A program made the position numbers and the translations under genes. Shown here one piece after another: positions 2,175 to 22,334 of a DNA stretch of 37,164 bases. How positions within the stretch are numbered: the first letter of the stretch is position 1; each line of letters opens with the position of its first letter. The DNA lies in IMG/VR virus record IMGVR_UViG_3300027996_000086, positions 1-37,164 of that record. One strand, written 5' to 3'. Origin of the DNA: a virus. The notes beneath the pieces are model-generated. The model was given only the letters and a program-made list of their open reading frames with translations, had not been told where the DNA came from and ran no database searches.

Positions 2175-2178
2175 ATAT

Positions 2179-2445
2179 ATGTCAGAATCAAAAACAATTT
2201 TAAATCAACTAACAGAAGACTTCCCGGATGAAACATTCTTATACCCAACAGGGTATGAAGATTGTGTTGTAGGTCTCCAATACGCATCCAACGTACTCAT
2301 AATGGATTCCAATAAGATTATCAATAAGCTAATAGTAAACGAGGGATTAAGCGAGGCAGATGCCATTGAATATTTCAACTACAACATTGCAGGTGCAGGA
2401 GGAGATGGTTTTCCTATATACGTATACATCCCCGAAGAAGAATGA
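2179..2445 (+). CDS. conserved phage hypothetical protein
   Basis: An 88-residue acidic protein. The segment ADAIEYFNYNIAGAGGDG resembles, from memory, small conserved phage proteins with an EAIEYFEYNV-type motif that are common in many tailed phages and have no assigned function. The ATG follows a short AT-rich gap of four bases. Its stop overlaps the ATG of the next gene in an ATGA arrangement. Confidence 0.6.
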   Translation: MSESKTILNQLTEDFPDETFLYPTGYEDCVVGLQYASNVLIMDSNKIINKLIVNEGLSEADAIEYFNYNIAGAGGDGFPIYVYIPEEE

Positions 2446-2861: not shown

Positions 2862-2877
2862 TGTCGCTGACGACACT
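2860..2877. terminator. hairpin shared by two convergent operons (repeat copy 2)
   Basis: The sequence AGTGTCGCTGACGACACT forms a 7-bp stem with a 4-base loop. It fills the 14-base gap between the plus- and minus-strand genes. The TAG stop of each gene overlaps the outer two bases of one arm. There is no long T-run on either side, so classical Rho-independent termination is not certain. It could act as a bidirectional terminator, RNA end protector or processing site. It is a variant of the dispersed repeat. Confidence 0.6.
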
Positions 2878-5800
2878 ATCTAATCCTGCGGAACTTTCTT
2901 CTTTTCATTTCTGATTCTCTTTTCTTCTTCAGCTTATCTCTATCCTTGGTTCTTTTTTCCGATTGTTTTTTTATCTCCTTTTCACGCTTATCTCTCTCTC
3001 CGAACTGTTTTTTGTAAGCATTCGGGTTGTACTCCTTCAAGTCTCTTTCATACTGTTTCTGTTCTGTCTTGGTTCGTTTCCCCTTTGATTCCTTTGCTTT
3101 CTTCTCTGCTTCTGTTTCTCCACTCGGCGAGTATGATTTGCTGATACCCAAAGCATCGAAGGTAGCTTGGTCAAACTCCGCCCCATCAGTTCCGAACATA
3201 TTGTACAGCCCTATGAACGGGTCCGTCTGCATCCCTAATACTACTTCAACTATAGGCTTTAGACTTCCTGCCCATCCATACTTCTCTATTTCTTTATTTA
3301 CTTTATAGTATATGCTTAAGATAGGATTGGTAACATCACCGGCAAATTTATTCCCGCCAAACTCTCTCTCTGCAAAACTTCCTAATAATGGAATCTGATA
3401 TAAAAGATTAAGACCCATCATTGCCTCTTTCATTTTCTTAAGAGCCTCATCCCTGTCGTCGTCGTCTCCCTTTATAAACTTAGCGAGGTTGGCTGTCCCC
3501 GCGAACATAACATTCGCTATCCCAAGGTTAAGAGCAAATGCTCTAACATCTTTTCTCTTTGGTGCAGCCTTGGCAGCCTCTTTTCTTTTTTGATTCGCCT
3601 CCTTCATCTTGCCCTGTGCCGCAAGCATAGATGCCTCTGCAGATAGCCTTAAAGACATTGCCGAATCTCTTCTCATATTCTTGGTTGACTGCATTACCCT
3701 GTTCATCTGTAGGAACAATGTGCTTCCGAACATTGTGAAGGAGCGAATAAGTGCGTTGTTATCAAATTGAAGAGGTATTTTATCTGCAGCTCTACGCGAC
3801 TGCTGTGTGGCGTTGTAATTGTTGAAAGCCTCTACAGCCTCCGTCTTACTCATACCGTTCTTTATGTTACGCTTGTGGTTAATCATATACCCCATCACAC
3901 CTAAGATATCACCTAACACTGTTGGTGCTGCTGCGGATGTTCTGATTAATGCTCTTGCTCTTTTAAACCTTGATGACTCTTTGTTTACATTCTTAAAAGT
4001 TTTAGAACCCGATTCCAATCCGTATACATCACCCTCAATACCCTGCTCAACCCTTCTCTTGAATGTGGCTGACATCTCCATAGCTTGGTGTATCGGTCCA
4101 TTCTTACCCACTAAGTCCAATGGCAGTGATAATATTGTAGTCGCCGCGTCAAACATAAACCCAAGCGTATCCATTCCGGGGATATATCTTTTTCCTTTAC
4201 CCCTGTAGTTGTAATCTTCAAAAGCTTGTACGAATGATGATGCCTGCTTTAATATTTGTATCGTCTTAAAGGATAATGCGAATGATGTGAACTGAGTCTG
4301 AAGTTTTGTCAGCAGTTTGTTTTTATTCCCGCCTTCTAAAGAAGCAGGATTTATAGCTTGATTAATTGCTATCTTCATAGCTCTTAAAATCTTAGACTCT
4401 TGAAGTAATAGACCTACTTCCGGTATGCTAAAGAAATCATTCATCTCACGCACTCCCTCGGCATAAGCCATAAACTTTTCCATTGTCTGCGTGTGATTGT
4501 CAAGAGTGCTGAAGAAGTCTGCTCCTACTAAGTCTATGTCTGATTTGTAGTTCTCACGTTGTTTGAATGAATCTGCTGTCTCTGCGTTAAATATACCGCT
4601 GAAGTCACCGTTCTCTAAAATTCCACCCGTTTCTTTACTGCTAATTGTTTTTGTTGGAAAATAGTTTTCTATGAACCCTAAGTTAACATTGTTCACCTGT
4701 GCATACACACCATTGACCTGCTCGTAGTATTCGTTACTCAAGAAGCTGACGACACCCTCAACGAACTTTACCACATCCGGCTCAAGTATTTCCTTTATTT
4801 CCTGTAACTGTTCTTTCCCTATGCCTTGGTTCTCAAGCTTAGCTCTCTGAACATCGTTAAGACTAAGCGCATATATACGCATCAGTTGGTCAGCATTAAG
4901 CTTCTGTTCGGATACTGTTTGTTTTCCGTCTTTGTTTACAACAGTCTTTATTCTATGTATCCCTGTATACAATCTTCTTTTAACTCCCTTGATACCCCCA
5001 ACAATGCCCACTGATTCTGCAATTTGGTCAAGCTTCTTACGTGTCGCGATAGTCCCTCGGTTGTTGTTCTCATCCATTCTGTTGAGTGACTTATAGGTGT
5101 TGTCGGTGAATATAGATTTCCCTTCTGTTATTCTATCCGCTATGTTTGCTAATGTTTCAACATTACTAATACTGTTTTTAGCACTTTGTATCCAATCTTT
5201 TATCGTGTCAAATTTAAAGCTTGATTTCACCCACTCAAATATTGCCTCCGGGATTTTTCTTTCTCTTATTAATGCGCGAACCTCATCCTTCTTAGAGTTT
5301 AGTTCATTATTATTTAAGGGTTTCCCATTCTCGTCAAACAATTCGGGATTTGTTTCCTGTATCTGACTCCTTACTTTCTTAGCCTTATCTGCTCTGAGCT
5401 GTCTCCTAACAGTGTTCTCAGCCTTGAGCTGTGCGATTGATTCACTGCTCATATCCTTCAGTGTATTGAGCAGGTCATTGGTCTCCTCAAGGGTCATCCC
5501 CTGTATAGGAGCGAAGTTGTCAAGAGCCTGCACCTCAGCAAGAAGCTTCTGTTGTTTGGTAGTAAGAATCTTATCCGCTGTCAGAGGGTTCTCTTCCTGT
5601 ATAAGAAGAGCCTCATTAATCTGTTGCTTTACCTCCGGGTCGTTTAGCCTGTCTCGTAGCTTCTGAATCTTCTCCTCTGCTTCTTCAATCCGAGTCTGCG
5701 TGTTGCTGATAGACTTAGCCTCTGCTTTTGTGCTACGCTTCTTACCCTCAAGCTCCTGTATTTTAGTCGCTTTCTCTTCTGCTGATAGCCTTGTGTTCTC

Positions 5801-8800
5801 GTTTACCTTATCTATCTTATTTTCTATGTCGAATAATCTTTGGTCAATCTTAGACTGAAGTGCCTGCATACCCGCTCGTGCTCGTGCAAGGTCAACGATA
5901 TCTTCTACTATAGGAAGAACAGCTTTAAAGTATAGCTGTGTTGCTGCGTTAACCCCTGCACCTCTACGCTTTCCGCTCCTTGTTATCTTTACCTTTGATT
6001 TCTTTTTAAGTATGTCAAGGATACCCGTTACGGTCTCCGCTTTCATACGTGCTCGTGCGTTTTGTATTTCAATCTCTACCTTCTCAATCTTAGATTCAAA
6101 GTTCTCTACGGTTGAATCCACAAGAAGCTTGTTGATTCTTTGTATAGCACCACGCGTATACGGAGTATCCGGTAGGCTCTGTCTGATGTAGTTCTTCAGT
6201 CTTATCTGAGCTTCTTTTAGGTTTTTCTTTCCAATCTTTCTTTGCTTGAGTGTCTCTCTAATCTTAGCCATCTCCGCCTGTACTCTTCTATTGGAACGGA
6301 TAGGTCCCTGTGCATCAAAGTCTCTGTATAGCGATTGGTCATACCCCAATAGAATCTCTTGTTGTGTCTGTTCGGGTTGTTTCTTAAATATTGGATTAGC
6401 CTTTAATGTTTCCTGTGCTTTCTGTCTTATCTGAGAGAAAGTTTTGTTACGTGCTCTTACTCCCGACACTCCGCCTCTTGGTCCCATCACTGCAAACTGA
6501 CGAACAGTTTCTTGCGTCTCATCAAATAGCTGACGTGCCTCGTCAATACCACCCTCTACTTTCTCAAATGCTCGTGGCATCGGACGTGTTTCGTTTACGA
6601 TATCAACCGTAAGAGCTTCATTAATATTACCTGTTGAGAAGCCTCTATCTTTTAGCACCTCTCTGATTGCGGCATCCGTGAAGCCGAGTCTTCTACCCCT
6701 GTCTATTACATCAAATATAGGAGATGTTCTACTAAATAAAACCTCCGGGTTCTTCATCTTCTTTTGCTGAACCTCTGTAATCTTTAGGTCCTTACCGCTG
6801 AATACATCAGCCAATGCTGTGCCTAAAAACTTATCAAGGGTTAAGTTCTGAATTTCTTTAGCTGTTAAGTCCTTAGATAGCGTTGGGAATTGGTCCTTTA
6901 TGTATGACCACATTCCAAGTAACCACTCTTTAAACTGCGCGTTTAGAGATGCGTTTGCTATGGTTTCTCCTTTGTTTCCTATGAGTATAGCCATAGCCTC
7001 TTTTGCTGCGGCTACCCTGTCTCCATCAAACTTCTTTAGCTGCTTCTGAAACTCTTCGGTCTGCTCAACAAGAGACACACCCTTAGCGTAAATCTCTTTA
7101 CCCTTCGTTGTTGTCTGCAAGTAGTTCTGCCACACGTGACCCATCTCGTGAATCTGAGTGTTGAACAAATCAGATTTGTTGTTGTGAACCTCCGGATTTA
7201 CGTACACGTCTCCGTCTACAGTGACACCATAAACAACATCACCATCCTTCATAACAGCCTGTACCCTATCCGAGTTCATAACAGCCTCAAACGTAGCTTG
7301 GTCTGTGGATATAGCTGTGTTTGGGAATGCTAAGTTCATAAAGTTAGCAAGCTTATTGGCATCACTGACGCTCTCAACTGATGTGATAGCACCAACCATA
7401 CCCTTCTGAGGTATGCCCTTGCCCACGTTAAGAGCGTTTTCAATAGCCTTATCTTCGGATATACTCTCGCCTACTTCGCCTTCTTTCTGTGCAGCCAAAG
7501 CCTTTTCCTCTGCCTTCACAGCCTTGCCTATTACAGCAGAAAAAGTTTCTCCGTATGTATCAAGAATGTTCTGCGGATTCTCAAGAACCCCTATCGTCTT
7601 ACCCTTGATACCACCTTTATAGTTCGGGTGCTCTATGCTCACCACGCCGCCTGCTTCAGCCCAACTCTTTCCGTCTTTCTTTGCAACCTCGACTCCCTGC
7701 AGTGAGATGATACTCTTCTGAGGTACGTTCTTAGTGGATGGCTCGGTGATAAGGTCTGTGATAACCGCTAAGTTTAATAGCTGTTCTGAATTTGCTATAC
7801 CCTCTGCTAATAATTGAGCTGTGATTGGGCTCTTAGAATTAGGGGCTGATACTCTTTTTTTCTGTCCCGGCATATTAGGACCACCAACCGTCATCATCTT
7901 TATCAGAGCTGTCCGTGCGGGCAATGTCATCTGCCTAAGATTATCGGGTGTCAATAGTTCTTTAAAATTGGTTATGTTATTGTTGCTTAACATTCCTATT
8001 ATATTCTTCACACCTTTTCTTTCTGCATCTGTGCTATACTTAGGCTGTCTTCTTTTTATATCCTCCTTGAACGCCGCGAATGCTTCCTGCTTATTCTTCT
8101 CCGGTATCTGTGATATGTTGTCCAAGAACACTCTGAACACCGCCTCGTTTGATAGCATTGAGCCCTCACTCATTTTTACTACGGGCATCGGAACGAGACC
8201 CGCTAACTTTGGATTCGCTTCCCAAAACCTGTGAAACAGTTCCTTATTATTCTCGTAAGCCCTTCGTGCTTTATTCAAAAACTCTCCTGCTTTCTTCTCG
8301 TCTATACTCGCCCAAGCTAAGTTCTCATTCCCCTCAATCCCTGTGAAACCAACACCACCCTGTAGATTATCTATCGTTGTTCCTGTGTTAGGATTCACAA
8401 CGCTACCTATAGTAAGTTGGTCTGAGATATTAAACACAACAGGTATGCCATTGATAACCTCAAGGTTCTTTATTCTCGGCATCGGTCTCGATGCTCTTTC
8501 ATCAAGGCTGTTTATGTCAGTCTTCTCCTCTGTTGTCTTTGTTTTTTCTGCAAGACTAAAGTCAGCATTAGGAGACTTCTCAGCAAGCTCATTTATCTTC
8601 TCTGTTATAACCTCTTCCTCTGTGGTAGTCTCTTTGGTAGCCTCTCTTTCATCAGTCCTAAAATCAACGCCCGAATCAAGTTTCTTTTTTAGCTTAGCGA
8701 TTCTTGACTTAGCTTTCCTTGCCTCTCTTTTCGCTTCTGACAAATCAAATTGATAGTTCTCTATGGCGGCATCCCTATCGTTCATAAAGCCATCTCTTTC

Positions 8801-11800
8801 AGCTTCGAGGTCATCAAGCTTATCTTGTTTCTTTTGTTTAGATAAGGTTTTATTTTTTCTAACCTTAGCCTTCTCTTCTTTTATTCTTTGAGCCTCTTCT
8901 TTATAGTTATCCTTTTCGTTTTGAATTTCTTCTTGAATGTTTTCAAGGTTCATTTCTAAATCGTCAAGCTCATTGTTTTCAATATCTGCTATTTCAGCCT
9001 CAATCTCTTCTCTCTTGGATTGCGTTTCCTCAGCTACAGGTGAAGCTTCCTCGGTGACTTGTTCATCAATCTGCTCTTGGGTAAGCATAACATCTCCCTC
9101 ATCTATAGGACCCTCTTCGGTAGTCACCTCTTCCTCAACCACTGTTTCAGTCGGTGTCGTTGGCGACACTTCCTCCTGCTGTGTTCCAAACTCCTCGTCA
9201 ACTATTCTACCGAGTTCCTCGGTCTCTGCCTTGAGTGTCGTTGGCGACACTTCCTCTGTTGCTACCGTCTCTTGGGTTGTAGGTTTTTTATTCTTTAACT
9301 GTTTGGTAATTTCTTTTGCTTTGCTATTTGTATCGGTAAAGTCACTAATGAATTTAGCATCTCTAACAACAGTAACATCCTGCTTTACTTGTGGTCCATC
9401 ATATATGTTTTTAAAAACAACCGCATCATAACCATTTTCAAAAGCATCTTGAATAATTTTATTTTTATTTTTGCCTTCTGAAGTAGCTTGCCCTTCAAAA
9501 TCTACTTCTAAAACATTATCAGTATTTAATGTAGCTGAATAAATGGTTGGTTGAATTCCTTTTAATTTACCTAAACCTACAGAGGTAAGTAAATTACCCA
9601 ATGGGTCCATTGTTTCCTTAGAATAATACTCAGCTATATAGGGGTCGTTGCTAAAAAATATACCTTGAGCCTGTCCTGCATCTGCACTTGAACCCACCTT
9701 TGACATATCAAAACTCTGAAACTTACGAGGTGAACCTGTAAACAATAATCTTTTACCATTTTTATTATATACGGGTGACTTTAAAGAACCATCATCTAAA
9801 GCTTCCTCTACCACATTAATATTTTCAACCGTCTCCTCCGGCATCACCTCTTGTGTTGTTGTGGTCTCCTCTACTTGAGGCTGATTGTCAAGCCCAAACA
9901 TCTTAACAGCCTCTTCTTTAATCTGCTCTTCTGTTACTTCTGTCTTCTTTGCATACTTAACCTTAGACCCTCTGAAAGTCTTGACTCCAAACCTTCTGAG
10001 TCTCTGACCAAGAGTGACCCTCTGTTTTTTTCTTAAATTATTTTCTGCTTTCTTTAGGTATTCCTGTTGGTCTGTATCTGATAGGTCCTCAAATGTTGGT
10101 TGCTTTTCTTCTACCTGTTCCGTTTCAATGGTCTCAGATTGTTCGGTTTCGCTTGGTACTTCCCGTACTTCGCCTTCCACTTCTTCCACAACTCCGGCTT
10201 GTTTATCTGCAGGTACTGCTCCTGTTTCTTGCTCTTGAATGGCATCTACTTTTGTCTTTAAAAATTCACTTACTTCCTCATCGTTGTCAACTCTTGCTCT
10301 TGTCTTAAGAATCTTTCTCTTAGACATCTTCTCTATACGCTTCATAAACTCCTCCTTGGTGTAGGAGATATTGTTTATTGTATACTTACCAACATCACTA
10401 CGAACATCGGTATTTGTTGTTTGGTCAAGACCAATGATGTTTAGGTTGGTCTCTGTTCCTGATTCTTTAAGATTACCCGTCTCAGCAATCTCAGAAATCT
10501 CTTTATTTATCTCTGTTACCTTTTGAGAGAATGCAGACTTCCTGTTTGCTGTGCTCGTAAGCTCTTTCTTAGCAGCCATAAGCTCCATTACACGAGACTG
10601 AGTCTTCTTATTGGACTTTGTGTCCTTGTTTATGTCTAAGACGTTCTTAGCGTCTCTTTTAAGACCTAAGTTCTCACGTATTCTTTGAGTCTGTTCTGTG
10701 TTAATCTTGCCTAACCTTTCCATATTATCAGCCCAAGAAAGAATACGCTCCTCAGAAACATTCTCGCTCATCATACCGTCTATAGTAGCAAGCTTGTTTG
10801 CAAGGTCTACATTATTGGTGTTACGAGCATCCTTGTACAGGTTGATTGCCATAGCACCTGTGTTGTTCCCAAATCCACCCATAGCCTCAGCGAATATTTC
10901 TTTTCCTGATACCTGTTCTCCGGCGTTTACCTGTGCAAGAAACTCACCTGTCGCCTCTCCTAAAGGGTCAACAACCGCACGCTCACCCAACATCGCGCTT
11001 ACTCTTGCGGTCTTAGAAGATAAACCACCTACCTTAAATACTCTACCTGCAAGACCTGCTGTTACATAATTCATAACAGCAATGGGCACACCTCTTTCGT
11101 GACCCTTCTTGCTTCCCTCTTTCCAAACCTCCTCGTCCTTTAATGCTTTTACAACATCGTTAGGGTCCATCATATTGTACCCCTTCTCTCTTGCTACATC
11201 AAGTATGGAGTTGGTATACTCCATAGCGTATCCCGTTGCTGCAAATCCTGTTTTAAATCCTTGACCTGCGCCAAGCACGGCTCCTGCAGATGTACCATAC
11301 CCCGGAACTATAAAAGTACCTACACCCGCACCTGTTGCCGCACCTGTTGCTGTTGTTGTTCCAATAATCTTTGTTCCATATGGTAGCATCTGAGATAAGC
11401 TTCCCGCAACGAATGTCGCTGTTAATTCAAATGGGTCATCCTTGAAAGCATCCCAACCCTCTCTAAAATCACGGGCACTGTTCCAACGGTACTCTGCTCT
11501 TCCCGGAGCGCGAGACTGTGCCGCTTCAAGGTTCTCCACTATAGTCTTTGCTGCTTCTTCTACTGAGGCGTTATCATCTATATCTGTAATCCCTAATGAT
11601 ATGTAAAGAATCTCCTGTGCCGCCTGCCCATTATCGAAACCATTTCTCCAACTGCTATAAACTGCCTTCCAATTTTCATCGAATGCACTACGCACGTTCT
11701 TGTCAAACTTACCATCAAACCAAGTATTAGCCAATTCGTATTGTGTTGCCGCATACTGTGACTCTGTTCTTGCAACGTCATAGTTAGTGAGCAGGTTGTT

Positions 11801-13612
11801 TATCTCCTCAAATTCTTCTTTATTTTTAGGCTCATACTTTTTTAAGCTTTCTATTTCTAGACCAAACTTATCTATAGATTCTTGATTTAATGTTTGTTGT
11901 TGATTTAATGCTACTTGATTGGTGACAATGGCATCCTTAGAAACCCTGTTAAACTTACCCTCTACGTATACATCAAAGTCCTCACGAACGGTTCTAAATT
12001 GGTCATCATTAACAAACTCCATAAGGCTATTAGCATCACGGTCTATATTTTTCTTTACCTCTTCAATATCAGTCCTTAGCTTTTCTCCTGCATAAAAATC
12101 TGCATACTTCTCTTTCTCTTCTTTTGTAAGATTTTCTTTATCAGTGTACCCTCTTGTTTCAAGAAACATTTGAGTCTCCTTAAGCTCATCATACCTGTCT
12201 AGCGCATCTCTGTAAGACCTGTAATCTAGTCCTCTTTTTTCAAAGAATCTATTGGCTTCGTAATCAAATGTATTTACATTCTTCCAAGACCCCTCGGCAA
12301 AGTTAGCAGCATCTTCTTCGTTCTCAAACCAAGTTAGCTCATTTCTTTTATCAGCTTCATCAAGAGCAGCATCCATATCAAGCTCAAGCCATTCTTCAGA
12401 ACCACTACCGTAGTATCTTAGATTAGGATTCTTTGGGAATAATGTTGGATAAGCGACATACTTTCCGTCAACCTCAGCATAGGTCATCAGCACCGTAGAC
12501 TCTGTACCATCTCCATTATCCCTTGCGCCTGTACGCATATCTCTTATACGAATAGAGTTTGTTATATCGTCATCCTCAAGACCTTTGTTAAACTTATTAG
12601 ATGGCTCAGCGTGTTTGTTTAAAAAAGATTGTAGCTTTGTTACTTCTTCTTCTGCTGAAGAATCAAACCAAGTATCAAAGTCTATCTCCATTTTTTCACC
12701 ATCAGCGGCTATAACCTCAAGAGCATCTCCCCAACCTATTTGTTTAAAATTAAAACCAAACTCTCCAAAGTCTTTGTTTAGATATGCCTGTGCGTCTTCT
12801 TCGTTCTGCTGTATAACATATTTTGTTATACTATTAACTCTACTCGTAAACTGAGGCGGAAGAAACTCACGAAACTCGTCTAATTCTTTTTGAAGCCCTT
12901 CAGCTTCTTTCTTTTCTTTATCCTGTATTTCTTTTGTTGCTGCTTCTTGTTTGATTTTTTGCTGAATATTATTTAATCTTTCCTCAGTTTTTACATCATC
13001 CTTGTACTCAAGAGCTTTCTTAAAACCAAGTTCAGCATTGTATAAATCTCCCGCTAACTCTGCTCTCGCTGCCTCTGTTGCTATCTCATCAAACTTCTGT
13101 GTCTGTGATTCCTCTACAGCCCCCATAAGTTTACGTGGTGTTTTGGGGGTTGATGGTGTCTCTATTGCTGTAGACATAGACTCAACCTGCGTAGGGTCTG
13201 ACACCCTCTCGCTATCTTCCTCAAAGGTGAAACCGCTGAGCTGCCGCTCTCTTATTTGTTCGGGGGTAAGCCCCTCATTCTCTACTGATTCCGATGAACC
13301 ATCTGCCAATGTGGATACCGTAGTATCTTGAATTTTTTCTTTTATTCTTTCTAAGAAAGGAGTTGAGGTATCGGCTGACTCTTCTCCAACGTCTTTTTTT
13401 TTTACAGGAAGGTCTTCTGTTGAGAAACTAATTCCAATTAATTCTGCAAAATCTTGCTTCGTTCCCTTATATCCTGTTGATGTAAAGGATGAAAAGCCAT
13501 CTTGAAATGCTTCCGGGTTAGTCTCTAATAATATTTTAAAATCATCCGGACTACCATTATATCCTGTGCTTACAAACTCTTTATATAAATCGTTAAATGC
13601 TTCTTCGTTCAC
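2876..13612 (-). CDS. giant polyvalent ejection (internal virion) protein with ADP-ribosyltransferase-like and zincin domains
   Basis: A 3578-residue protein, last in the virion operon, in the slot of the T7 gp16-type internal core protein. In order (approximate residues): two STGY[NK]G repeats (1-60); linker and coiled coil (70-250); a domain ending FAEGSWK (350-446); a Gly/Ala-rich hydrophobic stretch that may insert in membranes (730-785); an ART-PolyVal-like domain with LLFTGSPRKFQ, FFSNDPYIAEYY and YDAVVFKN (1275-1420), where Thr stands in the usual first-motif His place; coiled coil (1530-1660); an unassigned domain (1690-2040); a zinc metallopeptidase with HEMGH (2155-2159) and a likely third-ligand Glu in KEAMA; helical polyvalent-type regions including ENYFPTKT (about 2982); a hydrophobic LPD38-like region (3100-3450); a very basic tail. 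The start is GTG, overlapping the previous TAG stop by one base. It is probably injected with DNA and modifies host proteins. Confidence 0.8.
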   Translation of the reverse strand: MNEEAFNDLYKEFVSTGYNGSPDDFKILLETNPEAFQDGFSSFTSTGYKGTKQDFAELIGISFSTEDLPVKKKDVGEESADTSTPFLERIKEKIQDTTVSTLADGSSESVENEGLTPEQIRERQLSGFTFEEDSERVSDPTQVESMSTAIETPSTPKTPRKLMGAVEESQTQKFDEIATEAARAELAGDLYNAELGFKKALEYKDDVKTEERLNNIQQKIKQEAATKEIQDKEKKEAEGLQKELDEFREFLPPQFTSRVNSITKYVIQQNEEDAQAYLNKDFGEFGFNFKQIGWGDALEVIAADGEKMEIDFDTWFDSSAEEEVTKLQSFLNKHAEPSNKFNKGLEDDDITNSIRIRDMRTGARDNGDGTESTVLMTYAEVDGKYVAYPTLFPKNPNLRYYGSGSEEWLELDMDAALDEADKRNELTWFENEEDAANFAEGSWKNVNTFDYEANRFFEKRGLDYRSYRDALDRYDELKETQMFLETRGYTDKENLTKEEKEKYADFYAGEKLRTDIEEVKKNIDRDANSLMEFVNDDQFRTVREDFDVYVEGKFNRVSKDAIVTNQVALNQQQTLNQESIDKFGLEIESLKKYEPKNKEEFEEINNLLTNYDVARTESQYAATQYELANTWFDGKFDKNVRSAFDENWKAVYSSWRNGFDNGQAAQEILYISLGITDIDDNASVEEAAKTIVENLEAAQSRAPGRAEYRWNSARDFREGWDAFKDDPFELTATFVAGSLSQMLPYGTKIIGTTTATGAATGAGVGTFIVPGYGTSAGAVLGAGQGFKTGFAATGYAMEYTNSILDVAREKGYNMMDPNDVVKALKDEEVWKEGSKKGHERGVPIAVMNYVTAGLAGRVFKVGGLSSKTARVSAMLGERAVVDPLGEATGEFLAQVNAGEQVSGKEIFAEAMGGFGNNTGAMAINLYKDARNTNNVDLANKLATIDGMMSENVSEERILSWADNMERLGKINTEQTQRIRENLGLKRDAKNVLDINKDTKSNKKTQSRVMELMAAKKELTSTANRKSAFSQKVTEINKEISEIAETGNLKESGTETNLNIIGLDQTTNTDVRSDVGKYTINNISYTKEEFMKRIEKMSKRKILKTRARVDNDEEVSEFLKTKVDAIQEQETGAVPADKQAGVVEEVEGEVREVPSETEQSETIETEQVEEKQPTFEDLSDTDQQEYLKKAENNLRKKQRVTLGQRLRRFGVKTFRGSKVKYAKKTEVTEEQIKEEAVKMFGLDNQPQVEETTTTQEVMPEETVENINVVEEALDDGSLKSPVYNKNGKRLLFTGSPRKFQSFDMSKVGSSADAGQAQGIFFSNDPYIAEYYSKETMDPLGNLLTSVGLGKLKGIQPTIYSATLNTDNVLEVDFEGQATSEGKNKNKIIQDAFENGYDAVVFKNIYDGPQVKQDVTVVRDAKFISDFTDTNSKAKEITKQLKNKKPTTQETVATEEVSPTTLKAETEELGRIVDEEFGTQQEEVSPTTPTETVVEEEVTTEEGPIDEGDVMLTQEQIDEQVTEEASPVAEETQSKREEIEAEIADIENNELDDLEMNLENIQEEIQNEKDNYKEEAQRIKEEKAKVRKNKTLSKQKKQDKLDDLEAERDGFMNDRDAAIENYQFDLSEAKREARKAKSRIAKLKKKLDSGVDFRTDEREATKETTTEEEVITEKINELAEKSPNADFSLAEKTKTTEEKTDINSLDERASRPMPRIKNLEVINGIPVVFNISDQLTIGSVVNPNTGTTIDNLQGGVGFTGIEGNENLAWASIDEKKAGEFLNKARRAYENNKELFHRFWEANPKLAGLVPMPVVKMSEGSMLSNEAVFRVFLDNISQIPEKNKQEAFAAFKEDIKRRQPKYSTDAERKGVKNIIGMLSNNNITNFKELLTPDNLRQMTLPARTALIKMMTVGGPNMPGQKKRVSAPNSKSPITAQLLAEGIANSEQLLNLAVITDLITEPSTKNVPQKSIISLQGVEVAKKDGKSWAEAGGVVSIEHPNYKGGIKGKTIGVLENPQNILDTYGETFSAVIGKAVKAEEKALAAQKEGEVGESISEDKAIENALNVGKGIPQKGMVGAITSVESVSDANKLANFMNLAFPNTAISTDQATFEAVMNSDRVQAVMKDGDVVYGVTVDGDVYVNPEVHNNKSDLFNTQIHEMGHVWQNYLQTTTKGKEIYAKGVSLVEQTEEFQKQLKKFDGDRVAAAKEAMAILIGNKGETIANASLNAQFKEWLLGMWSYIKDQFPTLSKDLTAKEIQNLTLDKFLGTALADVFSGKDLKITEVQQKKMKNPEVLFSRTSPIFDVIDRGRRLGFTDAAIREVLKDRGFSTGNINEALTVDIVNETRPMPRAFEKVEGGIDEARQLFDETQETVRQFAVMGPRGGVSGVRARNKTFSQIRQKAQETLKANPIFKKQPEQTQQEILLGYDQSLYRDFDAQGPIRSNRRVQAEMAKIRETLKQRKIGKKNLKEAQIRLKNYIRQSLPDTPYTRGAIQRINKLLVDSTVENFESKIEKVEIEIQNARARMKAETVTGILDILKKKSKVKITRSGKRRGAGVNAATQLYFKAVLPIVEDIVDLARARAGMQALQSKIDQRLFDIENKIDKVNENTRLSAEEKATKIQELEGKKRSTKAEAKSISNTQTRIEEAEEKIQKLRDRLNDPEVKQQINEALLIQEENPLTADKILTTKQQKLLAEVQALDNFAPIQGMTLEETNDLLNTLKDMSSESIAQLKAENTVRRQLRADKAKKVRSQIQETNPELFDENGKPLNNNELNSKKDEVRALIRERKIPEAIFEWVKSSFKFDTIKDWIQSAKNSISNVETLANIADRITEGKSIFTDNTYKSLNRMDENNNRGTIATRKKLDQIAESVGIVGGIKGVKRRLYTGIHRIKTVVNKDGKQTVSEQKLNADQLMRIYALSLNDVQRAKLENQGIGKEQLQEIKEILEPDVVKFVEGVVSFLSNEYYEQVNGVYAQVNNVNLGFIENYFPTKTISSKETGGILENGDFSGIFNAETADSFKQRENYKSDIDLVGADFFSTLDNHTQTMEKFMAYAEGVREMNDFFSIPEVGLLLQESKILRAMKIAINQAINPASLEGGNKNKLLTKLQTQFTSFALSFKTIQILKQASSFVQAFEDYNYRGKGKRYIPGMDTLGFMFDAATTILSLPLDLVGKNGPIHQAMEMSATFKRRVEQGIEGDVYGLESGSKTFKNVNKESSRFKRARALIRTSAAAPTVLGDILGVMGYMINHKRNIKNGMSKTEAVEAFNNYNATQQSRRAADKIPLQFDNNALIRSFTMFGSTLFLQMNRVMQSTKNMRRDSAMSLRLSAEASMLAAQGKMKEANQKRKEAAKAAPKRKDVRAFALNLGIANVMFAGTANLAKFIKGDDDDRDEALKKMKEAMMGLNLLYQIPLLGSFAEREFGGNKFAGDVTNPILSIYYKVNKEIEKYGWAGSLKPIVEVVLGMQTDPFIGLYNMFGTDGAEFDQATFDALGISKSYSPSGETEAEKKAKESKGKRTKTEQKQYERDLKEYNPNAYKKQFGERDKREKEIKKQSEKRTKDRDKLKKKRESEMKRRKFRRIR
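9153..9170 (-). repeat. dispersed hairpin repeat, copy 3
   Basis: The plus strand has GTGTCG-TTGG-CGACAC, a 6-bp stem. On the coding strand it encodes VSPTTP in an acidic linker of the giant protein, after the ADP-ribosyltransferase-like domain. Confidence 0.85.
9234..9251 (-). repeat. dispersed hairpin repeat, copy 4
   Basis: AGTGTCG-TTGG-CGACACT, a 7-bp stem, 81 bases from copy 3 and in the same frame. It again encodes EEVSPTT, so the linker carries two copies 27 codons apart. Confidence 0.85.
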
Positions 13613-15603
13613 TATGGTTTGTTTTTATTGTATATGCTTCGGTCTTTCTTAGGGGGTGTCTTTGACGACACTTCTTTCTTTTGTGTTTTTCTGTAATCGT
13701 ATGTCTCATCAAATAAGTCCTCTACTGCATCTGCTCCTAATGATAATATATAATCTCTAAACTCACCAAATTCTCTAGAATTATATTCATTTAAATCAAG
13801 GCTGTTTATTTCATTACCATCTGCATCTTCAAGTGTAATTACATCATATCCCGGTGTAAGAGGTATAGTAACTTTAATTTCATCTGATAAACCAAGTGAG
13901 CTTATCATTGCTCTTACGTTTTTAGCGGCTTCATCTTCATCACCTATGACAAGTCTATCCGTGTTGAATAACTCTGCGTTTGGACCCTCTGTCTTGTTGT
14001 ACCTTATAAACGCTTCCTTTTCCGTTTCCTCAAACTCCGGGGTTCCTGCTCTTCCCGAAGACATACCCCTCAGACCTGTAGGGTCTATCGTTGTTACTCC
14101 TCCAAGAATTGCGTTCATATCATCCGCTCCCATAACACCGAATATTTCTGTACCTAAGTTCATCCAAGCTGTAGCATCGGTCCCAACAGGTCCTGTGGTG
14201 GTAAAGTCGTTGTCTGAATCTGAATGTTTAAAAGTAATCTTGCCATCTTGTTCAAAAATAATATCGACTACTTTGTCATCTTTCTCTCCCTTCCCTACAT
14301 TAGCCGCCATAATAACAGCATCTATGTTGTTCTGTCTTGATGTCTCGTCGGTAGCAGTACCAATATTTTTCCACAGCTCAACAAGGTTTTCTTGTTTCTC
14401 TTTGTCCTCTCGACTTTTAATAGTTGCGGAAGTTGGCTGTGGTGCAAAAGCCTTAGCCCCTGCAGATTTCGCTTCTTCGCTTACAGATATTTTACTACGC
14501 ATCTGAATTTTTAGATAGTCATAAGCCTTCTGTATCTGCCCCTCTGTTGGCTCAGCAACAAGACCTGTGGGTGTGGTTCTGTAAAATATAACAGACTCAT
14601 CTCCTCTTGCGTGTGCTGCTTTGGCTTTTTTCTCATCTAACTCAGTGGTAAATGTTTCATTTAAGTTCTCTGTTAGTATTGATGTTACGTTATATGGATT
14701 AACTAACATCTTATCAATAGCAAATTTTTCTTGTGCTGAATAAGAACTAGCCGCTAATGTTTCATAGTATTCTACTTCTCCAATAAGTTTGTTATCGTAG
14801 TCTTTTTTAAGACTTTCTAATTCTGCTTTAGTAAGATACTGCCCCTCTTTTTTATCAGATAACGTATATATCTTATTTAGGTCACCGCCTTTACTTGCAG
14901 CCAATATAATTGCTGACGTAACATCTCCAAGCTGTTCTACTTCTGCAGCAGTAGCTGAATCTACGTCAAAATAATCGTATTTAGCTTTAATTCTATTTTT
15001 TAATTCACCTACAGTATAAACATCATTAGCACTATCACTGATAACCCTCACCTGCTTTCCGTCAATAGTCTTATTTACGTACTTTCCTAAACTAACTACT
15101 CCATTGGTAGGGTTTATAACAGCGTCTGTATTTTTTAAATTGCTTAAACCCTCTACCATCGCCATTAGGTCAGACTCTAATTGCTGACTTCTATTAGCGG
15201 GGTCTATGTTATCTATTCTGTCCATCTTATCTTGATACTCAGCTTCATAATCTTTAGCTAAATCAAACATCTGAGATGTTCCGTCGTTTAGATTCTGCCT
15301 CATAACCGCATAATTATTAGGCTTAAGAATTCCGGACTTTAATAATCTGTCTTGAATTAACAACTGTTCTTGCGCCTTGTCTGCAAATTTAATAGCAAAC
15401 TCATTTGCAGTCGCAAAATCTCCCGAAGGCAAGTCATCTGTAAGAACTTTTTGTTGTCTGCGTGAAGCTTCATCAATAGCCGCTTTCTTTTCCTCTCGGA
15501 TACGTGCTTCTTCTTGAAGCATATCGGTCATTCCCTGTCCGACCTGCGCCCAATTTATTGTTGAGTCTGCGCTTCTCTCTGCGTATTTATAATAGGTAGC
15601 CAT
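13612..15603 (-). CDS. internal virion protein (T7 gp15-like position)
   Basis: A 663-residue protein, mainly helical, with a charged N-terminal coiled coil (QEEARIREEKKAAIDEASRR, residues about 30-50) and acidic repeats. It has no signal peptide or membrane span. It lies between a small Ala-rich protein and the giant polyvalent protein, which matches the gp14-gp15-gp16 order of podovirus ejection proteins; the role is inferred from this order and length. The start ATG is preceded by an A-rich leader (TAAACTATGGC) without Shine-Dalgarno. The gene ends in TAG, whose G begins the GTG start of the giant gene. An imperfect hairpin repeat lies near its C-terminus and encodes VSSKTP. Confidence 0.7.
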   Translation of the reverse strand: MATYYKYAERSADSTINWAQVGQGMTDMLQEEARIREEKKAAIDEASRRQQKVLTDDLPSGDFATANEFAIKFADKAQEQLLIQDRLLKSGILKPNNYAVMRQNLNDGTSQMFDLAKDYEAEYQDKMDRIDNIDPANRSQQLESDLMAMVEGLSNLKNTDAVINPTNGVVSLGKYVNKTIDGKQVRVISDSANDVYTVGELKNRIKAKYDYFDVDSATAAEVEQLGDVTSAIILAASKGGDLNKIYTLSDKKEGQYLTKAELESLKKDYDNKLIGEVEYYETLAASSYSAQEKFAIDKMLVNPYNVTSILTENLNETFTTELDEKKAKAAHARGDESVIFYRTTPTGLVAEPTEGQIQKAYDYLKIQMRSKISVSEEAKSAGAKAFAPQPTSATIKSREDKEKQENLVELWKNIGTATDETSRQNNIDAVIMAANVGKGEKDDKVVDIIFEQDGKITFKHSDSDNDFTTTGPVGTDATAWMNLGTEIFGVMGADDMNAILGGVTTIDPTGLRGMSSGRAGTPEFEETEKEAFIRYNKTEGPNAELFNTDRLVIGDEDEAAKNVRAMISSLGLSDEIKVTIPLTPGYDVITLEDADGNEINSLDLNEYNSREFGEFRDYILSLGADAVEDLFDETYDYRKTQKKEVSSKTPPKKDRSIYNKNKP
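13656..13671 (-). repeat. dispersed hairpin repeat, copy 5 (imperfect)
   Basis: GTGTC-TTTGAC-GACAC with a 5-bp stem. It encodes VSSKTP close to the C-terminus of the 663-aa ejection protein, in the same frame as copies 3 and 4. Confidence 0.7.
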
Positions 15604-15610
15604 AGTTTAT

Positions 15611-16456
15611 TTAAAGATTAGGTCCTTGATTTGGGTCTTGATAAGCATTAGTAAAATCACTTCCAAAATATAAATTTTGTCTTTGAGTTTTTGACATACC
15701 TTTTTTAAATCCTCTATACTGTTGAGGACTCATATTCTGATAGTATTGCTGTGTGACAGCATCTCCAAACTGACTTGCATTAATGTTAAATGGATTATTA
15801 TCCATCATTGAGGGACTCATAGAATTAGGGTCAAATGTATTTTTAAGTGTACTCAGACCGCTTTCAGTTCCTGCCATTTTTCCTATAGCCGCTCTTTGAG
15901 CTGTTTGATTCTGTTGGTACAATGGAACCATAGACAATCCCTGTTGAGCCACACTTCCAATACCCTGTATACCCTCAGATATTTTAGCGGCACGCATTTC
16001 TTCTGCGTTTGCTGCAGCCTGCTGTGCTCCTGCTACCTCCTCTAAGTCTAACTGAACATTAAGGTCACGTAGTCGTGAGTCCTCTTGAGCTGTAAGCTTC
16101 TCAAGGTCTGATAATTCTTTACCCATAGCTGTTCGTGTAGCCGCCTGCTGCTTCTGTCCTGCTAATGCAAGCCTTCCTACACCACCTGCAACACCACGCT
16201 GCCCGGATTCTTGAAGAGCCTGTAGTGCTCCTGCTTCTGCTTGTAACGTAGCATCACGCTCTAACTCATACGCTTCTTTTTGTACAGCTAAATCCTCAAA
16301 GTAGTTCACATCCAAAGCGGAACGAGCGTCTTTCATAGCATCATCTGCTTTGGTTGCCGCATCCTCAGCTAATTTCTTTTGCTTGCCTGCTTGTATAAAT
16401 GAAGCGGTAGTTGTTCCCACTGATATCGCTAATCCTGCTATCGCTATTCCTGACAT
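15611..16456 (-). CDS. internal virion protein (T7 gp14-like position)
   Basis: A 281-residue Ala- and Gln-rich protein. It begins with a small-residue hydrophobic segment (GIAIAGLAISVGTTTASFIQAG, residues about 3-24) followed by a long coiled coil (KKLAEDAATKADDAMKDARS onwards, to about residue 165). The tail is Gln/Asn/Met-rich. This layout is typical of the smallest podovirus ejection protein, which forms the outer-membrane part of the DNA ejection channel. It starts inside the cupin gene (13-base overlap) and is followed after seven bases by the next ejection protein, so the three are probably translated together. Confidence 0.7.
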   Translation of the reverse strand: MSGIAIAGLAISVGTTTASFIQAGKQKKLAEDAATKADDAMKDARSALDVNYFEDLAVQKEAYELERDATLQAEAGALQALQESGQRGVAGGVGRLALAGQKQQAATRTAMGKELSDLEKLTAQEDSRLRDLNVQLDLEEVAGAQQAAANAEEMRAAKISEGIQGIGSVAQQGLSMVPLYQQNQTAQRAAIGKMAGTESGLSTLKNTFDPNSMSPSMMDNNPFNINASQFGDAVTQQYYQNMSPQQYRGFKKGMSKTQRQNLYFGSDFTNAYQDPNQGPNL

Positions 16457-17834: not shown

Positions 17835-20800
17835 TTAGCTAAAGTAATCAAATACAATATACATATACTGTTCTGTACCTCCTGCAGGAAGCGTGTATGT
17901 TCCTGTGATTGTAGGTATCGCACCTGTCTGTGGAAGCACCTGTAATCCGGGGTCAATTAATAAAGAGTTATACCCCACAAATGTAGGTGGGTAAAGCGTT
18001 GAGCTTCTACAAAACAACATTCTATTACTCGGTTGAAACTTGTAATTATCTGAAGGTGGTATGGAATTGCTTATCACAGATAAAACATCTCCGTTGTTAG
18101 GTATTATTCCGCCACCTTGAGGAGCGGTAACAACCGTTGTAGAAGATACAATAGGCGTAGATATGGTAGGCTTGCCCGGTGAAAACTCAACTTGCTCGCT
18201 CTGAAGTGCTGAAGTAAATGAACCGTCTGTCCATTGATATTGATTGTGAATAAACTTACCTGCATCAGAAGCGTCAGTAACACAAAAAGTAGTAAGAGTT
18301 ACTTCCTGTGCCTGCGGGCATCCAATCATAACCTCAAGCTCAACAGTTTGCTTACCTGATGCGGAGGACGGTGTTAATGTAATAACAACATCCGTATCTC
18401 CCACGCTGTCTTTGTTAAAACTAAAGGTCCCTGCGCCAATAGTGTTTATAAAGGTTGACGTTCCTTGATAGTCCTCTGCTATAGTTATACCCCCGCTTGC
18501 GCCTGCATCTGAAGCAATAGACAATATGTTATATTCTATATCGCAAATTCCAACCGTGTTCCCTAAATTAACTGTAAAGGAAATAGGGTTCTCTTGTGTA
18601 ACAGTAATGGTTCTTCTAACTCCGCAATTTTGCGTTGGTTCATCTTTTGGAATTTTAGTTTCGTTAGATGACAGCACATACTCATTCATATACGGGTCAA
18701 AGGCTCCAAGCTTCTGCGTATCTGAACTTCCAATAAATAAATCTCTAAACCAAGAACGCATCCCCATTTCTGAAATTACAGTGAGCTGTTCTGCTTGTCC
18801 CGAACCTTTAAGCTGTATGAGCGCACCTCTTTTTGCATCCGTAAAGAATTTATAGAATCCCCACTTTACGTAGCTCTCCGGGTTCTGACTTATGCCATAC
18901 TTCTCTACTCTCGCTATCTGCGTTCCTAATACTTCGGGTACAGAAGCTATAGAGCCACCTCCTGTGGAGTCACTAAGTAGATTCTTTCCTGCAAGCACGT
19001 AAGATATTTTGTCTTCCTGTAGCGTTAATATATCTGTTTCTCTTCCGTCAATTAATTCTATAGAACCAAAGGAGTCCTCTAAGGGTTTAAAATTTAAAAG
19101 ACCAAGGTTGAATTCATTGAGCTTGTTTACGTTCGTCTCATCGTTAAATACACCGCTATAAGTTAAGTCTGCAAACCTGTGAACTCTTGAATAATCTTCA
19201 GCGGCTGTAGAAAAGAATCTTTCTCCAAGCTCCATAGGCTTACCAACTATAGAGTCTAATATCTTAAAACTCTCAATGCCATTACCAAAAGAATAGCAGT
19301 TTCCAAAAGTAGATTTAACAATCGCATCGTCTATTGCTGTTTGGTCTTGACCGCCTCCTATAGCGGGGGAACCACTGTGAAAACCTGTGGCTTGGTCTAT
19401 AGCATAAGACTCAGACCCTTCATACCAAAGGTCGGGAGTTGCATCTTCCGGTTGTGTTTCAAAAACAAGAAGATTTTCTGAACGGAATATCTGCCACTCA
19501 CAAGTAATGGATGACCTTTTCTTTTCGCTGTTACCATTACCGCATCTTGGTGGACCCGTCATAATAAATCTGATGTCAGTTCCGTTCTTATACCATCTAT
19601 AATAATTCGTAAGGCTTCCCGCATAAGCATCCATACCATAGTTGTTTGCGGCTGATGTGACAACGGGTAAGTAAGTGTTAGTGATAGAGCTACCATTTCC
19701 TGTTGTGGATTCACCATCTGATAAAGTACCTTGAATTCCTTGTCCTTCAAACCACGAGGCTATATCGGGATAGTCAGCATCCGCAAAGAAAGTCCTATCG
19801 TACTCATAAATTCTTCTTTCACAGTTATTATTTCCATCTCCTGTACCAAGTCTTTGAAACTTAAACTTTAAAACTATTCTTGCTCTTTCCGGAATTGTAA
19901 AATCACCAAGCCCCCTATAAGCCATAAGCGGTTGGTCCTTGCCATTGAAATTGTTAAATACGGTTTCTTGTCCGGGATTAATTAACGCATTGTCGGGTAG
20001 GTTTAAGCTAATGCTATTTGTAGCCAACTTAATATATGTACCCGAAGGTAAGGGGATAGGGTCACCTGAATCATCAGTTGGTGCAGGGTCTAAAAAGTTT
20101 TTTTGTTGTGGGTTTTTCTCTAATACTACCACTTCGGTGCACGTATTCATAGGACCTACAGAATCTCTTTTTACATTTAAAGTGTCACCCTCTTCTACTT
20201 TTCTAGTATTCTCACCCTCTAATAAAATATAACTATCACCCGTGCTTGGGTCTTGAATATAAAAGTTGGAATAAATAATATCATATCCCTTCTTGTCCGG
20301 CTTAATACATAGCTTATACCTTGTTGCAAAGGAAGGAGCAATCTGAGAAGGGGGTATGTTAAACTGAATAGAGTTTTTAAATATTGAGTTAGAACAAGGA
20401 ACCTGCACTGAGTTGTTGGTACTCACCAAGGCTGTTGTAGCTCTGTTATACTCATCCATATATATTAAGCCTACCTCATAGTTTCTATTACTGTGTAAAC
20501 TCAAAGGTGTCTTAACAGAGCTAAATCTATTTAGTGGATTAACTATTTGAAAGTATTCATAGGTGCTTGCTGTTGGGGTAACAACATCGTTTACCCTTCG
20601 CATTGCAGGAAGCTGTATGTTTATCACATCCGATGTTACCGCAGGAGGGGCTAATGCTAATACATACGCTATACCTTGGTTCCCATTTGCAGGAATATTA
20701 TCATACCCCGATTCATACTTTGTTCTTGCTTGAGGAGTACCCGCATCTAATATATTCTGAATTGTACAGTTTATTACATCGGTAAGAGTGAACCCATTAC

Positions 20801-22334
20801 AAGATGTAGGATTGGCTGCATCATACACAGGAAGCATTGTTCCTGTTGGGAGTGATGTACCAAGTGAATTTAAAAAGTCAGGAGATGTAGCAAGTTTGTA
20901 TGCTGCTGTAGAAGTTCCATCAGTAAGATAATCTTGAATAAGAGTATACTCCCAAGTAATATCCACAGGCTGCTGTTCCTCAGCTAAAGGGGGAACAGTG
21001 TTGCTTGTGAAATCTGCGTGGTCTAAGGTAAAGTCTATAGATATTGTAGAACCCCTTGTAAGCTCAATGCCATTAAAGTCCATCTGCATTAAAGCATTGA
21101 GAACTACATACGGAGAGTTGAGAGGGTCTGCTTGGTAGCCCGGATTGCCAAGGGTTGTAGGAATATCTAACGTTGATACCTCTTCAGTTATTAAAGAGGT
21201 GTTAAAGCTTAGATTAATATTGTTTCCGTTTTTATCTTTCAAGTCATAACCCTCTACATAGTTACCATAAACAAGACGGTTACCCATTAATGTTTGTGCC
21301 TTTGCTAATAAAGGGACGTTATCATAATTTCTTAAAATTTCAGAATCGGTAAGTACAGTAAAAACTTTATATCCACTTAATTCATAAACAAAATCAGTGT
21401 TATTAGCAATACCATCTGTGTTCTTGTCAAATTTCTGTACCACTCTGACAATAGAGTTTGTAGATTCTTTGTATAACAAATCAAACCCTAATACCAAAGG
21501 GCTTCCTGTATCCATAGTTATAATTACATTGTTGTCCGCATTCTGCATTCCTTCATTTAAGAACGTAGCTATAGTGACATTAAAAAAGTCCGGCTCAAAT
21601 GCAGGTCTGCTAAACTGAGATATAGCGGAGTATTGATTATCTGCATACCTGTACCTGTAAGCAAAGCAAAGAAATCTTTCTTCAATGAAGTCATCGTTAC
21701 CCGGTATAGTATTAGTCTTTATGATTGGCGACGTAACAGGAGGCTTCTTTATAACAAGTATTTCTTCTGCAGTAAATTGGTCTGATAGTGTTGTTGCAGG
21801 TGATACTATTAATGGTTCCGGATAGTTATTTCTAACGTTAATTGCTCTTGGAGGATTAAGATTATCCGTAAAAAGAAGAATGTCTCTACCCGCCATATTT
21901 ACTCCGTTTATTAAATATGCAGAGTCAAAGTTTAAAGTAGTGTTAGTTGGAGATGTATCGTTTTTAACGCTAACTACGTGATAAGTAATTGCATCTGTTT
22001 TCATATCCATAGAAACAATCATATCAAGTTTTCCTGTTACTCCCGGAGATACGGTTTCAAAAGAAGAGTCGTGAACAAACCAATAAATAGTTTCATTCGC
22101 GCTATCCTCATATGCTCCTATACACTTTGCATTTATGCTTAAAGAGGTTCCATTAAATCCTAATGCTGTAATCTTAGTATTACCCTTTGAGTTCTCAACT
22201 GAGCCTATCTCTGAAGCTTCAGTAGAGCCAAGTCTAACATTCATAGCGTCAACGTACTCACCATTGGGCACAAGTCTTTCGTCTACAGACTTGTTCATTC
22301 TGCCTGCTATAAAATTTCTTTTTAAATTAGCCAT
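17835..22334 (-). CDS. large tail stabilisation / tail tube-type virion protein
   Basis: A 1499-residue, beta-rich, Asn/Thr-rich protein. The N-terminus (NFIAGRMNKSVDERLVPNGE, then YVDAMNVRLGSTEASEIGSV) is the hallmark start of the tail stabilisation protein family of Bacteroidota podoviruses: G-x-MN-x-DxDERL-x-PNGEY followed by S-E-x-S-x-x-G. Such proteins are thought to form the tail barrel below the ring proteins, equivalent in position to T7 gp12. The C-terminal 300 residues look like repeated beta sandwiches and may be exposed. No signal peptide is present. It follows a ring-protein gene after one base, in the order TerL-portal-scaffold-MCP-rings-tail. Confidence 0.8.
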   Translation of the reverse strand: MANLKRNFIAGRMNKSVDERLVPNGEYVDAMNVRLGSTEASEIGSVENSKGNTKITALGFNGTSLSINAKCIGAYEDSANETIYWFVHDSSFETVSPGVTGKLDMIVSMDMKTDAITYHVVSVKNDTSPTNTTLNFDSAYLINGVNMAGRDILLFTDNLNPPRAINVRNNYPEPLIVSPATTLSDQFTAEEILVIKKPPVTSPIIKTNTIPGNDDFIEERFLCFAYRYRYADNQYSAISQFSRPAFEPDFFNVTIATFLNEGMQNADNNVIITMDTGSPLVLGFDLLYKESTNSIVRVVQKFDKNTDGIANNTDFVYELSGYKVFTVLTDSEILRNYDNVPLLAKAQTLMGNRLVYGNYVEGYDLKDKNGNNINLSFNTSLITEEVSTLDIPTTLGNPGYQADPLNSPYVVLNALMQMDFNGIELTRGSTISIDFTLDHADFTSNTVPPLAEEQQPVDITWEYTLIQDYLTDGTSTAAYKLATSPDFLNSLGTSLPTGTMLPVYDAANPTSCNGFTLTDVINCTIQNILDAGTPQARTKYESGYDNIPANGNQGIAYVLALAPPAVTSDVINIQLPAMRRVNDVVTPTASTYEYFQIVNPLNRFSSVKTPLSLHSNRNYEVGLIYMDEYNRATTALVSTNNSVQVPCSNSIFKNSIQFNIPPSQIAPSFATRYKLCIKPDKKGYDIIYSNFYIQDPSTGDSYILLEGENTRKVEEGDTLNVKRDSVGPMNTCTEVVVLEKNPQQKNFLDPAPTDDSGDPIPLPSGTYIKLATNSISLNLPDNALINPGQETVFNNFNGKDQPLMAYRGLGDFTIPERARIVLKFKFQRLGTGDGNNNCERRIYEYDRTFFADADYPDIASWFEGQGIQGTLSDGESTTGNGSSITNTYLPVVTSAANNYGMDAYAGSLTNYYRWYKNGTDIRFIMTGPPRCGNGNSEKKRSSITCEWQIFRSENLLVFETQPEDATPDLWYEGSESYAIDQATGFHSGSPAIGGGQDQTAIDDAIVKSTFGNCYSFGNGIESFKILDSIVGKPMELGERFFSTAAEDYSRVHRFADLTYSGVFNDETNVNKLNEFNLGLLNFKPLEDSFGSIELIDGRETDILTLQEDKISYVLAGKNLLSDSTGGGSIASVPEVLGTQIARVEKYGISQNPESYVKWGFYKFFTDAKRGALIQLKGSGQAEQLTVISEMGMRSWFRDLFIGSSDTQKLGAFDPYMNEYVLSSNETKIPKDEPTQNCGVRRTITVTQENPISFTVNLGNTVGICDIEYNILSIASDAGASGGITIAEDYQGTSTFINTIGAGTFSFNKDSVGDTDVVITLTPSSASGKQTVELEVMIGCPQAQEVTLTTFCVTDASDAGKFIHNQYQWTDGSFTSALQSEQVEFSPGKPTISTPIVSSTTVVTAPQGGGIIPNNGDVLSVISNSIPPSDNYKFQPSNRMLFCRSSTLYPPTFVGYNSLLIDPGLQVLPQTGAIPTITGTYTLPAGGTEQYMYIVFDYFS

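What the first reader, a model, noticed from the sequence alone, without database searches (positions are those of the whole stretch)
2876..13612. 3578-residue polyvalent ejection protein with predicted ADP-ribosyltransferase and zinc protease
The last virion gene is far longer than T7 gp16 (about 1300 residues). It joins an ART-PolyVal-like module, an HEMGH metallopeptidase, a Gly/Ala-rich hydrophobic stretch and polyvalent helical domains. Because it sits in the position of an ejected core protein, it could deliver two effector enzymes into the cell with the DNA, as T4 Alt does for ADP-ribosylation. The first ART motif reads FTGS where H is common, so activity is not assured.
Basis: partly seen in the sequence, partly recalled or inferred. 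Interest (0 to 1): 0.7.

Follow-up and report, generated by a model that had tools for sequence, protein, structure and literature searches.

The report
Giant phage ejection protein, swappable cargo
A virus of bacteria encodes one 3,578-residue protein, probably carried in the particle and pushed into the cell with the DNA; a conserved protease-bearing scaffold carries interchangeable enzyme modules, and the module here (an ADP-ribosyltransferase) is absent from its nearest relative and may no longer work.

Summary
The ORF at 2876-13612(-) is open for 3578 codons and has full-length homologs. The ART reading is supported by homology: 37% identity (E 1e-16) to cr130_1 gp80, which is PF18760 ART-PolyVal at 8e-24. 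Two of the three H-Y-D catalytic residues are changed (T1292, F1319; D1412 kept), so activity is doubtful. The HEMGH zincin is supported by H/E/H plus E2205 being invariant in 52/52 homologs, but its model found no solved-structure match.

The neighbourhood is a crAss-type 'muzzle' podophage, not a T7 relative. The 281/663/3578-residue gene trio resembles, in layout, internal-virion trios of other podophages. 65 non-redundant relatives show a conserved scaffold (N-terminus, hydrophobic Gly/Ala stretch, zincin, C-terminus) with two exchangeable sites. In the nearest relative (77-85% DNA identity) the 567-nt ART segment is cleanly absent; the segment is among the most AT-rich of the gene and is flanked by a 12-nt repeat. 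Other relatives carry GNAT, DUF7178 or other modules.

So the zincin is core machinery (probably self-processing) rather than a second effector, and the ART is a cassette. This is a new family of a known kind (polyvalent proteins, Iyer 2017). Virion presence is inferred, not shown.

The parts
2876..13612 (-). giant polyvalent-type protein, 3578 aa
   Evidence: homologs
13388..13612 (-). N-terminal tandem repeat of about 45 aa (LYxxFVxTGYxGSxxDF...) followed by a KKKD motif; conserved at the start of most relatives, possible packaging signal (inference)
10859..11431 (-). Gly/Ala-rich hydrophobic stretch, residues 728-918; candidate membrane/channel segment (inference)
   Evidence: matches giants in gp16 position in Pseudomonas phage AF and Limnohabitans phage DC33
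9281..9847 (-). cassette site A: ART-PolyVal-like insert, 567 nt in frame, residues 1256-1444; T1292, F1319, D1412 at the H-Y-D positions
9848..9859 (-). 12-nt direct repeat ACAACACAAGAG at the 5' edge of the ART cassette
9269..9280 (-). 12-nt direct repeat ACAACCCAAGAG at the 3' edge of the ART cassette
7345..8658 (-). cassette site B: conserved domain of unknown function (ISDQL...GGxGF...NEAxxR...HPNY), residues about 1652-2089; replaced by an unrelated domain in the nearest relative
6578..7345 (-). zincin metallopeptidase domain, H2155 E2156 H2159 plus E2205, residues about 2090-2345
3113..6577 (-). conserved C-terminal scaffold, residues 2346-3500
13612..15603 (-). 663-aa partner protein (phrog_35506), conserved immediately before the giant
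15611..16456 (-). 281-aa partner protein (phrog_13764, virion structural), hydrophobic N-terminus
17835..22334 (-). crassvirus muzzle protein homolog (PF25731), fixes the phage type

Best explanation
The giant protein is an internal virion (cargo/ejection) protein of a crAss-type muzzle podophage. It works with the 281-aa and 663-aa proteins encoded just before it, as T7 gp14/15/16 or crassvirus cargo proteins do: packaged in the head or tail, pushed out ahead of the DNA, with the Gly/Ala hydrophobic stretch helping to cross the membrane. Its scaffold (N-terminus, hydrophobic stretch, zincin, C-terminus) is fixed; effector modules are plugged in at two sites before the zincin. The zincin most likely cuts its own polyprotein to free the modules. 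The ART in site A is a cassette that modifies, or in an ancestor modified, host proteins early in infection; with H to T and Y to F it may now be inactive or only bind. Shown here: gene, homology, cassette presence/absence and exchange, zincin residue invariance. Inferred: packaging, ejection, self-cleavage, activity.
For: ORF and homologs. Muzzle, portal, TerL and capsid context. Partner genes conserved across the loci (76 and 74 hits). ART homology: cr130_1 gp80 at 37%, E 1e-16, itself PF18760 at 8e-24. The low-confidence ART model matches ART-fold structures; the best is a cyanophage A4 pre-ejectosome chain, then MbcT, PARPs and RES toxins (E 0.002-0.04). Cassette absence in L047 at 77-85% DNA identity, GC 33.3% against 41.1% for the gene, 12-nt edge repeat found only there in the window. 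Coverage of the ART region by other relatives is zero while the flanks have about 45-60. Other modules: GNAT, DUF7178, DUF3293. Zincin residues 52/52. The Gly/Ala stretch is shared with gp16-position giants of other phages. Polyvalent proteins and MPTase self-processing: PMC5512222. Crassvirus cargo ejection: PMC10172136.
Against: No virion proteomics for this clade. phmmer found no homology to crAss001 cargo proteins gp45-gp50. No PDB match for the site B/zincin model. Pfam matches of the zincin are all sub-threshold (SprT-like in 20 of 52, best E 0.032). No cleavage site identified. The ART model is low-confidence (mean pLDDT 59).
Confidence: 0.7

Rival explanations
1. [quoted passage not shown]
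For: ART-PolyVal homology; strand-5 D1412 kept; F at the Y position also occurs in another phage homolog that keeps H (L008); ARTs are common in polyvalent proteins (PMC5512222).
Against: H to T at 1292 together with Y to F at 1319; from general knowledge of PARP-type ARTs, loss of the H goes with lost or weakened NAD binding.
Confidence: 0.2
2. The zincin is itself an effector (or entry enzyme) that cuts host proteins or cell-wall peptides rather than the phage polyprotein.
For: HExxH plus E invariant; T7 gp16 carries a cell-wall enzyme in the same position (general knowledge); Iyer et al. list host targeting as an option (PMC5512222).
Against: An effector would be expected to vary like the site A and B modules; this one never varies and is placed directly after them.
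Confidence: 0.25
3. Scaffold or tape-like structural protein only: the giant organises the core or fills the tail, and the enzyme-like modules are decaying passengers.
For: The scaffold is far better conserved than the modules; the ART has lost catalytic residues.
Against: The zincin site is invariant, and module exchange keeps bringing in enzyme families (GNAT matches at or above curated cut-offs).
Confidence: 0.15

Closest known systems
Polyvalent proteins of phages and conjugative elements (Iyer et al. 2017, PMC5512222)
   Same: giant multidomain protein next to virion genes, ART-PolyVal family module, zincin MPTase, module variety
   Different: no match to the published LPD families by Pfam; fixed two-site layout in one phage clade; exchange visible at DNA level between near relatives; ART active site changed
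Crassvirus cargo proteins gp45-gp47, gp49, gp50 of phage crAss001 (PMC10172136)
   Same: encoded in the block after the muzzle gene; cargo stored in the virion and thought to be ejected
   Different: no detectable sequence homology; one giant instead of separate RNA-polymerase-associated proteins
cr130_1 gp80 (crassvirus, NC_055901)
   Same: ART-PolyVal and an HExxH motif in one large late protein; closest ART in the named phages searched
   Different: ART at the N-terminus with intact H-Y-D; different scaffold; TAG recoded
T7 gp14/15/16 and phage N4 virion RNA polymerase (general knowledge; N4 also in PMC5512222)
   Same: small-medium-large internal virion set; the N4 protein is of similar size and has a zincin
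   Different: no lysozyme or RNA polymerase domain found; no homology to T7 or N4 proteins found by Pfam or PHROGs
T4 Alt
   Same: ART delivered with DNA is the proposed role
   Different: Alt is of the R-S-E ART clade and a separate protein
Giant 'structural proteins' of Tenacibaculum phage Gundel_1 and Flavobacterium elemo phages
   Same: zincin region similar by sequence (Gundel_1, E 2e-7) and predicted fold; in Gundel_1 preceded by two smaller genes
   Different: different flanking modules; annotated structural, experimental proof not checked here

Membership tests
Polyvalent protein (Iyer 2017) | several unrelated domains in one large polypeptide | tested here: met
   ART homology plus zincin plus site B domain
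Polyvalent protein (Iyer 2017) | encoded with virion genes | tested here: met
   portal, TerL, capsid, muzzle in the same run
Polyvalent protein (Iyer 2017) | delivered into the host with the DNA | not testable with these tools
   needs virion proteomics and an ejection assay
ART-PolyVal (PF18760) | direct match to the Pfam model | tested here: not met
   no hit for the window protein
ART-PolyVal (PF18760) | homology to a clear member | tested here: met
   37% to cr130_1 gp80, E 1e-16; that protein matches PF18760 at 8e-24
ART-PolyVal (PF18760) | H-Y-D catalytic triad | tested here: not met
   T1292, F1319, D1412
ART superfamily fold | predicted fold matches ART structures | tested here: inconclusive
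   listed matches look ART-fold, best E 0.0019, but model mean pLDDT is 59
Zincin metallopeptidase | HExxH plus downstream acidic third ligand, conserved | tested here: met
   52/52 for H2155, E2156, H2159, E2205; HEMGH lies in a predicted helix
Zincin metallopeptidase | fold match to solved zincins | tested here: not met
   no PDB match below E 0.8 with the 656-residue two-domain model; the zincin was not searched alone
Crassvirus (order Crassvirales) | muzzle protein of the crass fold | tested here: met
   PF25731 at 3.8e-8, above cut-off; phmmer from crAss001 gp44 hits sibling loci at about 1e-7
Crassvirus (order Crassvirales) | cargo and RNA polymerase proteins gp45-gp50 | tested here: not met
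   no phmmer hit in the clade, including the complete 60.8-kb relative
T7 gp16-type ejection protein | last and largest of an internal virion gene set | tested here: met
   281/663/3578 order conserved
T7 gp16-type ejection protein | lytic transglycosylase domain or gp16 homology | tested here: not met
   no Pfam or PHROG hit

The most novel reading that the evidence does not exclude
The giant is a plug-in delivery platform: a fixed ejection scaffold with two docking sites into which phages of this clade swap effector modules by recombination at short repeats in the linkers, with the always-present zincin releasing whatever module is loaded; in this phage the ART has become a non-catalytic binding module (decoy or NAD/ADP-ribose sensor).
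Probability: 0.25. Interest if true: 0.7.

Novelty: new member of a known kind. Interest (0 to 1): 0.5.

Why it matters
It gives a clade of roughly 60-kb muzzle phages in which one giant internal protein keeps a constant delivery scaffold while its enzyme modules come and go between closely similar genes. That makes the polyvalent-protein idea testable: natural pairs with and without a module exist (window versus L047; L057 versus L058), so module function, zincin processing and delivery could be separated experimentally. It also shows that an ART call alone does not mean an active enzyme.

Tried and rejected
Pfam and PHROG scans of the window protein gave no usable domain, so homologs were used instead. 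Pattern search with the ART alone found few relatives. PDB fold search of the site B/zincin model found nothing; the viral library mostly finds other phage giants. Sequence search of PDB with profiles gave only sub-threshold hits. Homology of the partner proteins and of the clade's ORFs to crAss001 gp45-gp50 was tested and not found. A virion RNA polymerase inside the giant was considered and rejected: no RNA polymerase family hit. Proteomics support through Cellulophaga phage phi38:1 was sought, but the passages found name no matching protein. The cyanophage A4 ejectosome paper is not held. DNA repeats in the linkers: only a short 12-nt edge repeat and one 22-nt repeat; the linkers are T/E/P-rich, so this is weak evidence for the mechanism of exchange.

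Full report
Observation. The ORF 2876-13612(-) is open for 3578 codons from a GTG. It is the last gene of a minus-strand late block whose other members are terminase, portal, capsid, other head/tail structural proteins and a muzzle. The muzzle matches PF25731 crAss_MUZ above its cut-off. The window is a 37,164-base linear viral record; a complete relative, MW202828, is 60.8 kb and circular, where the giant is named 'reticulocyte binding/rhoptry protein', which is a misannotation.

Relatives. Scans found 77 loci with homologous giants; the full set is 65 non-redundant at 90%. Complete ones run up to 3859 aa, median about 3100. The two genes before it (281 and 663 aa here) go with it (76 and 74 matching ORFs). 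A small-medium-giant order also occurs in Tenacibaculum phage Gundel_1 (225/511/2482 aa), Cellulophaga phi38:1 (200/549/1691) and Limnohabitans phage DC33 (203/562/3125); Pseudomonas phage AF has two small internal virion proteins and a structural lysozyme before a 2213-aa protein. The AF and DC33 giants share the Gly/Ala hydrophobic stretch of the window protein. This supports the reading as an internal virion protein of the ejection type, by position and by one shared segment.

ART. tblastn of the module against named phages gave cr130_1 gp80 at 37% identity, E 1e-16; that protein is PF18760 ART-PolyVal at 8e-24 and also carries an HExxH motif. In the alignment YHGS becomes FTGS (T1292), GFYFT becomes GIFFS (F1319), and QDV is kept (D1412). 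Iyer et al. define the clade by H, Y, D. The predicted model is poor (mean pLDDT 59), but the listed PDB matches look like ART-fold proteins, the best a chain of the cyanophage A4 pre-ejectosome (E 0.0019); none reaches 0.001. So ART homology is firm, ART activity is not.

Zincin. H2155, E2156, H2159 and E2205 are identical in 52 of 52 aligned homologs. The 656-residue model covering site B and zincin is good (mean pLDDT 83.7), with HEMGH inside a long helix and E2205 in a later helix. No PDB structure matched, and Pfam matches are sub-threshold, though the commonest is a zincin family (SprT-like, 20 of 52 members, best E 0.032). I call it a zincin on residue conservation, not on a fold match.

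Cassettes. Against P0001, relatives cover residues about 250-1100 and 1700-3500 about 45-60 deep, but residues 1200-1500 not at all. The nearest relative, L047, matches the window gene at DNA level in three colinear blocks (77%, 85%, 83%); the window has 567 extra in-frame bases exactly where the ART lies, and the two flanks meet in L047. The insert has GC 33.3% against 41.1% for the gene, close to the lowest of the sliding windows (minimum 33.0%), and GC3 21.7% against 38.3%. A 12-nt near-repeat ACAAC(A/C)CAAGAG sits at both edges and nowhere else in the window (the pattern was chosen after seeing it). A second segment, residues about 1652-2089, is replaced in L047 by an unrelated domain that I read by eye as GNAT-like (Pfam found nothing there); 48 of 65 relatives keep the window's version. 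A second pair, L057 and L058, share the scaffold at 74-86% DNA identity but carry a GNAT and an ART-like module (PF18760 at 0.0024, below cut-off) at about the same place. Further modules before the zincin: GNAT and DUF7178 (L072) and DUF3293 (L049), and a second HEFGH in MW202828. Direction of change is not proven: low GC favours gain in the window over loss in L047.

Mechanism. The constant parts are those an ejection machine would need; the variable parts are enzyme-like. The zincin is constant, so I place it with the machine and follow Iyer et al. (PMC5512222) in proposing self-processing. Crassvirus work (PMC10172136) shows cargo proteins stored in capsid and tail and proposes that they leave before the DNA; this clade has no detectable gp45-gp50 homologs, so the giant and its two partners may stand in for them. 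These steps are inference.

Verdict. The added findings are the cassette behaviour and the doubtful ART site. It is a new family within the known polyvalent-protein kind.

Noticed in passing
window 17005-17829: A 274-aa gene next to the muzzle matches the C-terminal part of longer structural PHROGs (phrog_15100, positions 1550-1633 of 1783), so the muzzle may be split into two genes here.
   Followed up: no
window 32709-33272: 187-aa protein matches phrog_13932, co-chaperonin GroES.
   Followed up: no
window 35579-36238: Sequence reads like an N-acetylmuramoyl-L-alanine amidase next to small membrane-like genes; probable lysis set (by eye).
   Followed up: no
window 13388-13612 and relatives: Tandem 45-aa repeat plus KKKD at the N-terminus of most giants; possible packaging signal.
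   Followed up: partly
L008 300-12338: Unrelated 4012-aa phage giant that carries an ART with YHGT (H kept, F at the Y position).
   Followed up: partly
L005 13902-25481 (MW202828): GenBank names this giant 'reticulocyte binding/rhoptry protein', a misannotation; it carries a second HEFGH motif before the main zincin.
   Followed up: partly
L094 (PQ492659.1): Limnohabitans phage DC33 is filed under Inoviridae although it is 39 kb with podophage-like giant genes.
   Followed up: no
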